Shown piece by piece: positions 44,891 to 48,100 of a stretch of DNA of 64,000 nucleotides (position 1 is the stretch's first letter; each line of letters begins with the position of its first letter). Location of the stretch: assembly GCA_018660825.1 (NCBI GenBank), contig JABJJO010000062.1, positions 1-64,000 of the forward strand, read 5' to 3'. This DNA is from Planctomycetaceae bacterium. GTDB lineage: Bacteria; Planctomycetota; Planctomycetia; Pirellulales; Pirellulaceae. A program made the position numbers and the translations under genes. The notes under the pieces were generated by a model. The model was given only the letters and a program-made list of their open reading frames with translations, was not told where the DNA came from and did no database searches.

Positions 44891-46030
44891 TTAAGCGGTT
44901 TTAGAGCTTTTGGTCTTTTTGATAATTCCCCGCAGAAATTGGAAGGCAATGAACAGCAGAAACGGGTACACTGGCCACAGCCTTAGGATGATTGGAGAAC
45001 TTTCGGCAAATGTCGTCGTGGGAATTGATTTTGTCGTTTGGTGTAGATCGCGGAGATCTGAAAGTCGTATCGTGTCAAATGTCCAAAACAGGCCAATAAC
45101 GGCTAGTGTCAATAACAATAAAAAACATCCAACTCCCGACATCACTCCCTTAAATGCATCCGTTTCCGTTGGGTGGGTTTCAAACAGTTCAATCTGTCGC
45201 CCTCTTTTCAAGGACAACGGAATCATCTCAGCAGTTTCTCTGGCCTTTGCGTAGTCGAGCCAACTGGGCGATAATTTTGGGTTGGACATTGAAAAAACAA
45301 TCGCGAGTTGATTATCAGTAGTGGCGTGGAAAAAAGAACGCTGGGGCTCTACTGTTTGTTCGTTTGAAAGAATGTATTGAGTGGTCGCGTGATTATTGTC
45401 GCTGTTGGACCACTGGATAATTGTGCTATTCCTCATTTCAATCGTTATGGAAATATCGATTTCCGCTGTGGGGGATATCGGGACTGATGTGCCAGGGGAA
45501 ATAGCAAATAGATATTTGGATTCACCGGCAATGGGTGCCAACTGAATTAAGTCCCGTGTTAAAGCTGCTGTAATGTCGCTCAATAGTCTTGTGAGGATGT
45601 TTTCGCGAATATCTATTTTCCGGATTACTGTGCCTATATCCAATGTCGACAGACCGGCAAAACACATTGGTATCAGTACGGCATCGGACTCTGTCCGAAT
45701 CATCTCCAACTCATAGGCGAAAAGTGAGTCCGCACTAGGGTCGATGATGATTAGAGAGAATCCATTTGAAACTAGGCTCCGAACAACATCCTGATGTGAG
45801 TCGACTCCCAGTTTTAGTGCAACAAAGATTTTGGTGTTCGCATCGACGCCTAGCAGTTCCGCCCAATCGCTCAACTGGGAAATCGAGGAATAGTAGGCTG
45901 GTGGAACAAACTTGGCGTCGTCAACGTAAATCGCTGAGCACTGGGCTCCCGTTAAAAGCGCGCGTTCGAGGACGTCCACGCAATCCGCAGTGAAACCAAG
46001 GAATACAAACTCTGAATTACGGTCGCTCAT
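44891..46030 (-). CDS. Membrane protein with N-terminal Rossmann-like domain, function unknown
   Basis: 379 residues. The N-terminal 150 residues have a Rossmann-like rhythm (EFVFLGFTADCVDVLERALLT, then AIYVDD, then IFVAL and LIIIDPSAD), loosely resembling the nucleotide-binding half of Gfo/Idh/MocA proteins, but no G-x-G-x-x-G is present. The middle (about 180-290) is beta-rich. Two membrane segments near 300-322 and 350-372 put the protein in the membrane, ending in a Lys-rich tail. I do not recognise the family. It lies downstream of the Mur-domain genes on the same strand with a 139-base gap. Confidence 0.7.
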   Translation of the reverse strand: MSDRNSEFVFLGFTADCVDVLERALLTGAQCSAIYVDDAKFVPPAYYSSISQLSDWAELLGVDANTKIFVALKLGVDSHQDVVRSLVSNGFSLIIIDPSADSLFAYELEMIRTESDAVLIPMCFAGLSTLDIGTVIRKIDIRENILTRLLSDITAALTRDLIQLAPIAGESKYLFAISPGTSVPISPTAEIDISITIEMRNSTIIQWSNSDNNHATTQYILSNEQTVEPQRSFFHATTDNQLAIVFSMSNPKLSPSWLDYAKARETAEMIPLSLKRGRQIELFETHPTETDAFKGVMSGVGCFLLLLTLAVIGLFWTFDTIRLSDLRDLHQTTKSIPTTTFAESSPIILRLWPVYPFLLFIAFQFLRGIIKKTKSSKTA

Positions 46031-46169: not shown

Positions 46170-46562
46170 TTAAGCGACTCGTGGAGAGCGTAACAAGAGA
46201 TTTGCAGTTTCAACACTGTCGTCGATCAGACAGCGTTGCATGTAGGGATATAACAAATTAATCATAGATTCGACGGATTGTACTTGAATGACAAAAGAAC
46301 CCGCCAGAGGGGGAATGTGACTGGCACAGATGATTCCGTTGGCACCGTTTTCATAGGCGAGCATGCTATCCTTTAATAGTGAATAGTTTTCACAGCAATG
46401 GATATATGTGTCACCGAGTTGCACGGAATCTGGGTTTAACGCGAAACGAGTGATTTCCGTGTGAGTGCCGAAGATAGGTTCTATGTCAGCAAGAATAAGA
46501 TTTGCCCGCAAGAACTTCGTTAAAGTCGACACGGCAAGTTTGGTACCAGCGCGAGGCATCAA
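46170..46562 (-). CDS. Free-standing Mur ligase N-terminal-like domain
   Basis: 130 residues. The segment ALNPDSVQLGDTYIHCCENY followed by LAYENGANGIICASHI matches the substrate-binding N-terminal domain of MurE/MurF ligases (D-S-R-x-V-x-x-G-D-x-F pattern, then A-x-x-x-G-A-x-A-x-V). No ATPase or C-terminal domain follows: a stop occurs and the next 139 bases hold no remnant I can see. It overlaps the MurE-like gene upstream by 4 bases (ATGA at 46559-46562). Either a degraded Mur ligase or an accessory substrate-binding subunit of the partner. Confidence 0.7.
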   Translation of the reverse strand: MMPRAGTKLAVSTLTKFLRANLILADIEPIFGTHTEITRFALNPDSVQLGDTYIHCCENYSLLKDSMLAYENGANGIICASHIPPLAGSFVIQVQSVESMINLLYPYMQRCLIDDSVETANLLLRSPRVA

Positions 46563-48100
46563 GGAGTTCCTTCCGATGAGGACCCGTGGGCTTTAGGGAA
46601 AGGGAGTAGGTCGGTACCGTAAACAGGTTCCGGATAGAGCAGTTGGTCGAGGCAGATGTCGGCAATCTGATGGTCGTCAAAAAACAAAGTCTGATCGCCG
46701 AGTTGATGCTGTGTCCGAAAGCCCTTGCCGGTGATCAACACGGTATCATCGGTATTAGCGTGCGCTAATGCCCAGACGATAGCTCGTTCACGACTGATAA
46801 TAATTTCAGCATTTCCGGGGCGACGATATCCATCGAGAATGTCATGCGCTATAGAAAGCGTCTGCTCGTTGCCGGGGTCATTTTCCGTGATTATTGTAAT
46901 ATCAGCGGCTTTTTCCGCGATCCTGCCCATGTCGGCGCGGAAGGAGGCTCCTGTATTGGCTCCAGGACCGTAAACAACGATCAACCTTCCTAGGGTTATT
47001 TGACGCACGCTGTGCAGGGCGTTACGGAGCGCGATTGGAGAATTCGCTGCATCGATATAAACTTCGAAATCTTGACCCCGTGAAATTCGTTCAAGATGAC
47101 CTTGAATGGAATTTACCTGACTGATGGCGTCCGCAATTTCCGGAAGGGGGTAACCCTCGAGTAGTGCCAGTGCTGTAACTTGGAGACAGTGATAGACATG
47201 GTGATGACCAATAATAGGGGTAAAGACGACCGCCTCCGCGGCGCCGGCATGAATTCGAATACGCTGTCCGTCAGCGCTGTGATTAAGATGCTCAACCCAG
47301 ATGTCGCAATCGTCGTTTGATCCAATTGTTAGGGTGGGGTTTTCAATGCGGGGCAGATCAAATCGGGAGGCCGCATCGTCTGCGTTGATAATAACAACGC
47401 CTGTTGATTTTAACGAGTTGATGGCGTTAGAGGCAGCACGACGGGTTTGCTGTGCCGAGTCTGTAGCACTGGATTGGAAGTTAGTAAGTCTCGTGATGAC
47501 GGCATAATCCAAGTCGATGCCGGCTGAAGTTTGGTCCGCGAGATCACTATCACTTAGCTCGACGCAGGCAATCTGACATTTGTTGGCTGCCATCGAACCG
47601 AGCCAATTTGCGTATACTTTTGAGTCGGGTTTAATATCAGGGAAATCCGCTACGTCTATGCCATTATCGAAGCCTAGGTCACTTAACGCACCCGTCGTCT
47701 TGCCGAGATGTCGGAATACTTGCTGTATAAGGTAAGTAGCCGCAGTCTTTCCGCTGGCCCCACTAATTCCGATGGTTCTCAGACGTTGGGTCGGCGATCC
47801 GGCCAGATAATGCGCTGTGTTGGCGTACGCAACACGGGTATCGGGCACGACGAACGTGGGGATATTGGTTGGTAATATCCGTTCAGACACGATGGCAGTT
47901 GCGCCGTTGGCCGCGACCGTCGCAATGTCGTCATGCCCATCGCCAGTATCGGAATCTATGGCGAAAAATAGATTGCCTGGTTCACAGGCCGCCGCATCAC
48001 TTGTGAAGCCAGTAAAGCTGAGTCCTTGAGTATCGACTCGCAGGCAATTGGCAAGACAGTCGAGTATGTCAACGTCGGGGAGTAGGTTTCTCCGCAGCAT
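46559..48100 (-). CDS. MurE-like Mur ligase family protein (atypical motifs)
   Basis: 513 residues with the three-domain Mur ligase layout. The N-terminal domain has GFTSDAAACEPGNLFFAID. The P-loop is ISGASGKTAATYL (about 112-124) where MurE normally has TGTNGKTT. Central and C-terminal motifs are shifted: VELSDSDL replaces E-x-S-S-H-x-L, the D-H-L-D motif is missing, IDAANSPIALRNAL replaces D-Y-A-H-T-P-x-A-L, and TENDPGNEQ replaces the D-N-P-R-x-E diaminopimelate-binding motif. It is therefore probably a paralogue of the peptidoglycan DAP ligase with an altered substrate, not a standard MurE. It is coupled to a stand-alone Mur N-domain. Confidence 0.8.
   Translation of the reverse strand: MLRRNLLPDVDILDCLANCLRVDTQGLSFTGFTSDAAACEPGNLFFAIDSDTGDGHDDIATVAANGATAIVSERILPTNIPTFVVPDTRVAYANTAHYLAGSPTQRLRTIGISGASGKTAATYLIQQVFRHLGKTTGALSDLGFDNGIDVADFPDIKPDSKVYANWLGSMAANKCQIACVELSDSDLADQTSAGIDLDYAVITRLTNFQSSATDSAQQTRRAASNAINSLKSTGVVIINADDAASRFDLPRIENPTLTIGSNDDCDIWVEHLNHSADGQRIRIHAGAAEAVVFTPIIGHHHVYHCLQVTALALLEGYPLPEIADAISQVNSIQGHLERISRGQDFEVYIDAANSPIALRNALHSVRQITLGRLIVVYGPGANTGASFRADMGRIAEKAADITIITENDPGNEQTLSIAHDILDGYRRPGNAEIIISRERAIVWALAHANTDDTVLITGKGFRTQHQLGDQTLFFDDHQIADICLDQLLYPEPVYGTDLLPFPKAHGSSSEGTP

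What the first reader, a model, noticed from the sequence alone, without database searches (positions are those of the whole stretch)
46170..48100. Degenerate MurE-like ligase coupled to a free-standing Mur N-terminal domain
All specificity motifs of MurE are altered in the 513-residue protein (P-loop GASGKT, SDSDL, no D-H-L-D, ENDPGNEQ for DNPRxE), yet the ATPase fold appears kept. It overlaps by ATGA a 130-residue protein that matches only the Mur N-terminal domain. The pair might be an unusual amide ligase with a separate substrate-binding subunit, or a decaying peptidoglycan paralogue. Planctomycete cell wall history makes both plausible.
Basis: partly seen in the sequence, partly recalled or inferred. 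Interest (0 to 1): 0.5.

Follow-up and report, generated by a model that had tools for sequence, protein, structure and literature searches.

The report
Repurposed MurE–MurF remnant pair
A planctomycete that appears to have lost most genes for making a peptidoglycan wall still keeps, under strong selection, a catalytically broken MurE ligase together with the leftover first domain of MurF, which suggests that this old wall-building pair has been given a new, probably non-enzymatic job.

Summary
The two genes are real. The 513-aa protein is the MurE orthologue (TIGR01085 257.6 bits, cut-off 257.3) with a confident MurE fold, but it lacks the catalytic Lys224, His210 and DNPR-Arg equivalents. 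The small gene (129 aa from its ATG) is the N-terminal domain of MurF, left at the ancestral murE–murF junction (hhalign Prob 97–99 to MurF, 1–35 to MurE); relatives show full, truncated, N-only and absent states. The genome shows no other Mur ligase except a FolC-like protein, no MurG, and only sub-cut-off MraY and MurA hits. Yet dN/dS is 0.06–0.08, also in congeners without the P-loop lysine. In the order, 102 of 108 genomes keep a MurE-like protein at ≥170 bits; 22 have MraY. The family gained a helix motif, LxxxHxxxDG. Best reading: an exapted, probably non-catalytic MurE scaffold with a MurF-N accessory, working somewhat like plant PAP11. Loss of the wall pathway is published; I found no report of this pair. 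Function and physical pairing are untested.

The parts
46559..48100 (-). degenerate MurE orthologue, 513 aa (stop codon 46559-46561)
   Evidence: TIGR01085 257.6 bits, Pfam Mur_ligase_M 4.8e-17 and Mur_ligase_C 1.3e-19; AlphaFold model pLDDT 87.6; Foldseek matches PAP11 and MurE; dN/dS 0.077
46170..46559 (-). free-standing N-terminal domain of MurF, 129 aa from the ATG (130 aa if the upstream TTG is the start)
   Evidence: hhalign to MurF profiles Prob 96.8-99.1, E 2.9e-10 to 1.6e-18; to canonical MurE Prob 1-7, to the genus's own MurE-like proteins Prob 29-35; model pLDDT 81.6, MurF N-domains among the best PDB hits; dN/dS 0.063
47744..47761 (-). P-loop GASGKT, residues 114-119; kept here, lysine lost in 5 of the 7 MurE-like proteins of the genus (own included)
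   Evidence: alignment
47459..47494 (-). position of the TNLxRDHLDY loop, here TRLTNFQSSATD (residues 203-214), His210 equivalent missing
46862..46885 (-). position of the DAP-binding DNPRxE motif, here ENDPGNEQ (residues 406-413)
46829..46858 (-). family-specific helix motif L415-xxx-H419-xxx-D423-G424 (LSIAHDILDG)
   Evidence: L 20/21, H 20/21, D 20/20 in family f1 against 1/18, 0/18, 2/18 in canonical MurE of the order

Best explanation
The pair descends directly from the murE-murF segment of the ancestral cell-wall cluster. After the peptidoglycan pathway was lost in this lineage, MurE was kept as a full-length fold without its ligase chemistry, and MurF was cut back to its N-terminal domain. 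Both are maintained by selection for a new role. The most likely mechanism is non-catalytic: the MurE fold acts as a binding or scaffold protein (perhaps still holding a nucleotide through the P-loop in this species), the MurF N-domain is a small optional accessory encoded directly behind it, and a new contact surface lies on one face of the C-domain helix around residues 415-424. Shown here: descent, loss of catalytic residues, no detection of the pathway genes, purifying selection, a newly conserved helix motif. Inferred: absence of catalysis, co-transcription, physical association of the two proteins, scaffold role. The partner molecule is unknown.
For: Besides this protein only a FolC-like one (named from recalled motifs) carries a Mur middle domain in the genome; none of the 9 genomes of the genus has more than 2 such proteins. 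No MurG hit; MurA- and MraY-family hits below cut-off. Partner is a MurF N-domain, with intermediate states in relatives. dN/dS 0.077/0.063 in G000-G007 and 0.082/0.071 in G005-G006, the latter pair without the P-loop lysine. H210, K224, D413, N414, R416 and E468 each change at least 10 times on the tree, P-loop Lys and E182 twice each. All 17 regions with a MraY beside the gene have 10-11 of 11 positions. 102 of 108 genomes of the order keep the protein at >=170 bits while 22 have MraY. New LxxxHxxxDG helix. A precedent exists: plant PAP11, a MurE in a new role after loss of wall genes, is also the top Foldseek match by E-value.
Against: The P-loop and E181 are intact in the window's own protein, and the P-loop lysine is kept in 96 of 108 rows (E. 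coli and 10 duplicates included), so nucleotide binding or another reaction remains possible. PAP11's first place in the fold search is slight: T. maritima MurE has a higher TM-score (0.81 vs 0.79), and by sequence a MurE-MurF fusion scores better, so it says nothing about function. The MurF remnant is dispensable: not found in G008 and in many family members. Four of 108 genomes have only weak matches and two more lie below 150 bits; congeners G003 (69% complete) and G004 (89%) show none. Six rows with 10-11 intact positions show no MraY in the region held, so intactness and MraY do not match perfectly. Jeske et al. reported wall genes in all species they analysed and MurNAc and DAP chemistry from Rhodopirellula baltica (PMC4432640, passages). 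No expression, interaction or phenotype data exist here.
Confidence: 0.66

Rival explanations
1. It is still an ATP-dependent ligase, but with a new carboxylate and amine substrate.
For: Walker A GASGKT and E181 retained here; P-loop lysine and E182 change only twice each on the tree; family-specific H419 and D423 lie just after the old amino-acid-binding loop; LpxD and MurF N-domains, which bind uridine nucleotides (recalled), are among the partner's fold hits.
Against: Lys224 and His210 equivalents lost here; 5 of the 7 MurE-like proteins of the genus lost the P-loop lysine, and the G005-G006 pair among them stays under the same constraint; no new catalytic set beyond the helix residues was found.
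Confidence: 0.17
2. The organism still makes peptidoglycan with undetected or unrelated enzymes, and this is its MurE.
For: Wall genes and PG chemistry reported for related planctomycetes including R. baltica (PMC4432640, passages); MurB found in 38 of the 40 genomes of the relatives set.
Against: MurC, MurD, MurF, MurG, and over-cut-off MraY and MurA are all missing in a 96.6% complete genome; published profiling reports such losses for the order (PMC12283558, section 13); substrate-binding and catalytic residues lost.
Confidence: 0.08
3. A relic in the course of decay with no function.
For: Progressive truncation of MurF in relatives; a possible scar in G008 (weak tblastn match, E 0.25); four listed matches in the order carry one in-frame TGA.
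Against: dN/dS 0.06-0.08 in two species pairs (a third pair, G001-G002, was saturated for the large gene); no in-frame stop in any listed match, down to 27% identity; a newly conserved motif.
Confidence: 0.04
4. The large protein is exapted, but the small MurF domain is unrelated to it in function and adjacent by history only. (Overlaps with the best explanation, so confidences do not sum to one.)
For: Small gene not found in G008, G012 and many family members while the large one stays.
Against: Small gene starts within 12 bases of the end of the large one in 6 of the 7 genomes of the genus that have the large gene; similar constraint on both.
Confidence: 0.2

Closest known systems
[quoted passage not shown]
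   Same: MurE fold kept after most of the peptidoglycan pathway was lost; role outside wall synthesis; top PDB match by Foldseek E-value (8r6s_Q, 2.9e-41)
   Different: Plant protein has a long N-terminal and a short C-terminal extension and mostly keeps DNPR or DNPK (PMC9434261 passages, PMC12681378 passages and discussion); the bacterial protein lacks the long N-terminal extension and the DAP motif, and in some species the P-loop lysine. Binding to RNA polymerase untested.
Canonical MurE (UDP-MurNAc-Ala-Glu:DAP ligase)
   Same: Orthologue by position and profile; three-domain fold; P-loop and Glu182 equivalent
   Different: Lacks the His210, Lys224, His359, D413, N414, Arg416 and Glu468 equivalents; no MurC/D/F or MurG and no over-cut-off MraY found in the genome
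MurF (UDP-MurNAc-tripeptide:D-Ala-D-Ala ligase)
   Same: Small protein matches its N-terminal domain and lies directly after murE
   Different: No ATPase and no C-terminal domain; substrate-binding DSR and DGxxF positions lost
MurE-MurF fusion protein of Bordetella pertussis (PDB 8f5d)
   Same: MurE and MurF as one physical unit (PMC6420597, passages); best PDB match by sequence
   Different: Bifunctional with both halves full length; reported as elongated with distant active sites

Membership tests
MurE (TIGR01085) | Profile score over the curated cut-off | tested here: met
   257.6 bits against 257.3, barely
MurE (TIGR01085) | Three-domain Mur ligase fold | tested here: met
MurE (TIGR01085) | P-loop GxxGKT | tested here: met
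   GASGKT; lysine lost in 5 of the 7 MurE-like proteins of the genus
MurE (TIGR01085) | Carbamylated Lys224 and His210 (E. coli numbering, recalled) | tested here: not met
   A and Q
MurE (TIGR01085) | DAP-binding DNPRxE and Glu468 | tested here: not met
   ENDPGNEQ and R
MurE (TIGR01085) | Upstream and downstream pathway enzymes present | tested here: not met
   (MurB is present)
MurE (TIGR01085) | Ligase activity | not testable with these tools
   bench assay needed
MurF (TIGR01143) | N-terminal domain homology | tested here: met
   fold search agrees but does not separate MurF from PAP11 and LpxD
MurF (TIGR01143) | ATPase and C-terminal domains | tested here: not met
   129-aa protein, home-made MurF HMM positions 2-128 of 472
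PAP11-like exapted MurE | MurE fold kept without the pathway | tested here: met
PAP11-like exapted MurE | Long N-terminal extension | tested here: not met
   first strand of the model at residue 20
PAP11-like exapted MurE | Bound to RNA polymerase | not testable with these tools
   pull-down needed

The most novel reading that the evidence does not exclude
Across the Pirellulaceae the murE-murF segment was converted, after loss of peptidoglycan synthesis, into a dedicated non-enzymatic assembly with a newly evolved interaction surface: a bacterial, independent counterpart of the plant PAP11 exaptation, which may take part in the division or transcription machinery of wall-poor, FtsZ-less budding cells.
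Probability: 0.4. Interest if true: 0.78.

Novelty: new variant of a known kind. Interest (0 to 1): 0.6.

Why it matters
Annotated 'murE' genes may be counted when authors argue whether planctomycetes can make peptidoglycan. Here that gene is a maintained but catalytically broken descendant, so its presence is not by itself evidence for a wall. It also provides a graded natural series (intact MurE–MurF, MurE with truncated MurF, MurE pseudoenzyme with MurF-N, MurE alone) of a bacterial enzyme pair being exapted. It gives a concrete, almost order-wide candidate for an unknown function in cells that divide without FtsZ and, in most of the genomes surveyed, without MraY.

Tried and rejected
Separate substrate-binding subunit: rejected, because the large protein has its own N domain and the small one is MurF-derived. 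Paralogue: rejected, because no second MurE was found. Decay: rejected by dN/dS. Functional link through neighbours: an SDR, the c3 protein and an HtrA-like protease recur near the gene in several genera, but lie on the opposite strand in Blastopirellula marina L086, so no inference was drawn; Pfam gave one sub-cut-off hit for c3 (SafA, 0.0013) and none for the divergent 274-aa protein. Co-loss with MurB: G003 and G004 lack both, but G032, G064, G071 and G079 lack a strong MurE-like hit and keep MurB, so no link. A first scan for gained residues over all non-redundant sequences mixed in pattern-selected loci; because the scan itself used a pattern containing HDxLDG, the family counts of the motif rest on the pattern-free relatives. 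The canonical set there still holds 14 loci found by those patterns, which works against the claim. In one search, G006 and G007 were dropped from the family set as near duplicates, and L139 (11/11 but inside the degenerate clade, no MurF), L136 (fragment) and E. coli were left out of the canonical set. G034 shows only a middle-domain MurF piece beside a nearly intact MurE (10 of 11); not explained. Literature: two searches looked for a pseudoenzyme Mur ligase (no paper) or planctomycete MurE with pseudogene, four for planctomycete MurE; no listing or passage that I read described a maintained degenerate MurE or a MurF remnant. Complex prediction of the two proteins was not possible (monomers only).

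Full report
What is there. Two minus-strand genes lie at 48100..46559 and 46562..46170. The large one is a Mur ligase by Pfam (middle domain 4.8e-17, C domain 1.3e-19, N domain weak at 0.0075) and just passes NCBI's MurE model (257.6 bits, cut-off 257.3). The small one has no Pfam or NCBIfam match. Its likely start is the ATG at 46559, as in the sister genome G007, so the stop of the large gene and the start of the small one share one base.

Is it the only MurE? The window's genome (4.94 Mb, 96.6% complete) holds two proteins with a Mur middle domain: this one and one on contig C204 whose sequence looks like FolC (motif recognised from recall). With the MurE model the second scores at most 50.6 bits. 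MurC, MurD and MurF are therefore not seen. MurG gives no hit, MurA and MraY give only weak sub-cut-off hits, while MurB is present (163.4 bits). In the relatives set of 40 genomes (own included), a match over cut-off is found for MraY in 3 (G025, G034, G037), for MurG in 1 (6 with E below 1e-48), and for MurA in 3 (G034's match is split over contigs). The protein query finds this MurE-like protein in 37 of the 40, without an in-frame stop in any listed match; G003, G004 and G032 are the misses.

Active site. Eleven catalytic or DAP-binding positions were read off an alignment with E. coli K-12 MurE (names and roles of positions are recalled). The window protein keeps 4 (P-loop Lys and Thr, E182, R389) and has lost the equivalents of H210, K224, H359, D413, N414, R416 and E468. 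In its genus 5 of 7 proteins (own included) have also lost the P-loop lysine. Of 107 planctomycete rows, 10 of which are named loci that repeat genomes of the relatives set, 18 have all eleven and 23 have ten or eleven. All 17 regions with MraY beside the gene have 10 or 11; six rows with 10 or 11 (L082, L101, L109, L125, L139, G035) show no MraY in the stretch held, two of them with less than 2.1 kb in view. On a tree of 94 rows (ten duplicates and four fragments dropped, the eleven columns removed; quick method, 26 open forks, several long branches) the smallest number of changes is 14 for K224, 13 for H210, 13 for N414, 11 for D413, 11 for E468, 10 for R416, 9 for H359, 7 for R389 and T120, and 2 for the P-loop lysine and E182.

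The small protein. A profile of the six short partners matches a MurF profile (five relatives plus E. coli) at probability 96.8, E 2.9e-10, and with truncated relatives included 97.9, E 4.2e-13; adding G023 to the partners raises this to 98.5 and 99.1. Against canonical MurE the probability is 1 to 7, against the genus's own MurE-like proteins (with G012) 29 to 35. Relatives show the series directly: full length (for example G025, G035, G037, G039 and the degenerate G033), no C-domain (G009, G015, G022, L084, L088, L090, L093), N-domain match only (G000, G001, G002, G005, G006, G007, G014, G023, L091), N plus C with the middle missing (L103), and no match (G008, G012 and many others). The DSR and DGxxF positions of intact MurF are lost in the window's copy. 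The model is confident in its core (mean pLDDT 81.6). Foldseek returns PAP11 first, then MurF, with LpxD and MurE N-domains close behind, so the assignment to MurF rests on sequence profiles and position rather than on the fold search.

Selection. Nei–Gojobori dN/dS between G000 and G007 is 0.077 for the large gene and 0.063 for the small one. Between G005 and G006, both without the P-loop lysine, it is 0.082 and 0.071. A third pair, G001-G002, is saturated for the large gene and gives 0.115 at dS 4.1 for the small one. As yardsticks from the G000-G007 pair, the neighbouring c3 gene gives 0.111 and MurB 0.061. dS is 0.8-1.2 in the first two pairs, so values are approximate, but both genes are under purifying selection.

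Breadth. A search of 108 genomes of the order (at least 90% complete, drawn evenly) with the 43-row profile gives a match of 170 bits or more in 102. G096 and G104 lie at 141.6 and 131.7 bits, near the 120.5 bits that a neighbouring MurF reaches (G035). G032, G064, G071 and G079 have only weak matches. Four listed matches (G082, G087, G091, G092) carry one in-frame TGA. The lowest-scoring matches could be other Mur ligases; this was not checked. MraY reaches its cut-off in 22 of 108, each of which has a strong MurE match. If the two calls drew the same 108 genomes, as the listed handles suggest, 80 of 86 MraY-less genomes keep the protein at 170 bits or more.

A gained feature. In the window's family (21 sequences after dropping two near duplicates; all from a pattern-free search) 35 columns are at least 90% identical, and 5 of these are not typical of canonical MurE of the order: A67, P77, L415, H419 and D423. 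The last three sit four residues apart, mostly within a modelled helix directly after the former DAP-binding loop: L 20/21, H 20/21, D 20/20 in the family, against 1/18, 0/18 and 2/18 in canonical sequences. Three of five random columns fall within nine residues with a probability of about 0.008. None of the 14 rows from outside the family has both H and D. This is the best sign of a new function, but shared ancestry also conserves columns, and which molecule touches the site is unknown.

Structure and parallel. The large protein models as a complete MurE, including its own N-domain (mean pLDDT 87.6; residues 209-213, the old DHLD loop, are of low confidence). The top solved match by E-value is PAP11, the MurE-like subunit of the plastid RNA polymerase (8r6s_Q, 2.9e-41), closely followed by MurE structures, of which T. 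maritima MurE has the higher TM-score; by sequence the best is the Bordetella MurE–MurF fusion. The fold therefore does not favour one role over another. Plants matter as the known case of a MurE that took a new role after wall genes were lost (PMC9434261, passages; PMC12681378, passages and discussion section).

Literature. Loss of murA, C, D, F, G, J and ftsW in Pirellulales, Isosphaerales and Gemmatales is in print (PMC12283558, passages and section 13), and absence of peptidoglycan genes in most Planctomycetales is stated in PMC8567305 (passages). murE is called 'semi-conserved' in the class in PMC10632474 (passages). Against this, PMC4432640 reported wall genes in all species analysed, and peptidoglycan sugars and DAP from R. 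baltica (passages). I found no description of a degenerate, maintained MurE or of a MurF N-domain remnant in six searches of the open-access library; subscription papers and supplements are not covered.

Conclusion. The role is inferred to be non-catalytic and scaffold-like, with an active ligase of new specificity as the main rival.

Noticed in passing
L146 (G000:C101:33403-34224) and MurB loci L147-L165: MurB is found in 38 of the 40 genomes of the relatives set (own included) although MurA passes its cut-off in only 3. By eye the catalytic Cys/Ser or Arg position (recalled) has drifted in several of 20 aligned (for example G013, G016, G018, G022, G033), yet dN/dS between G000 and G007 is 0.061. 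It may be a second exapted Mur protein.
   Followed up: partly
44891-46030 (-): 379-aa protein with a hydrophobic C-terminal part and no Pfam match above cut-off; relatives of it lie near the MurE-like gene in 13 of 97 regions, in several right behind an SDR gene that is missing at that place in G000 and G007.
   Followed up: partly
L047 (G026), L074 (G029), L071 (G030), just downstream of the MurE-like gene: MurG-like gene (3.5e-49, 2.3e-66, 4.8e-67) kept directly after a degenerate MurE in genomes without a MraY over cut-off.
   Followed up: no
L086, 4806-6494 (+): Blastopirellula marina DSM 3645 carries the MurE-like gene (8 of 11 positions kept) with no MurF match in the 4.9 kb held downstream; a practical organism for experiments.
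   Followed up: no
L139, 4935-6494 (+): Blastopirellula sp. NORP48 MurE keeps all 11 catalytic positions but sits inside the degenerate clade and has no MurF match in the 5 kb held downstream.
   Followed up: no
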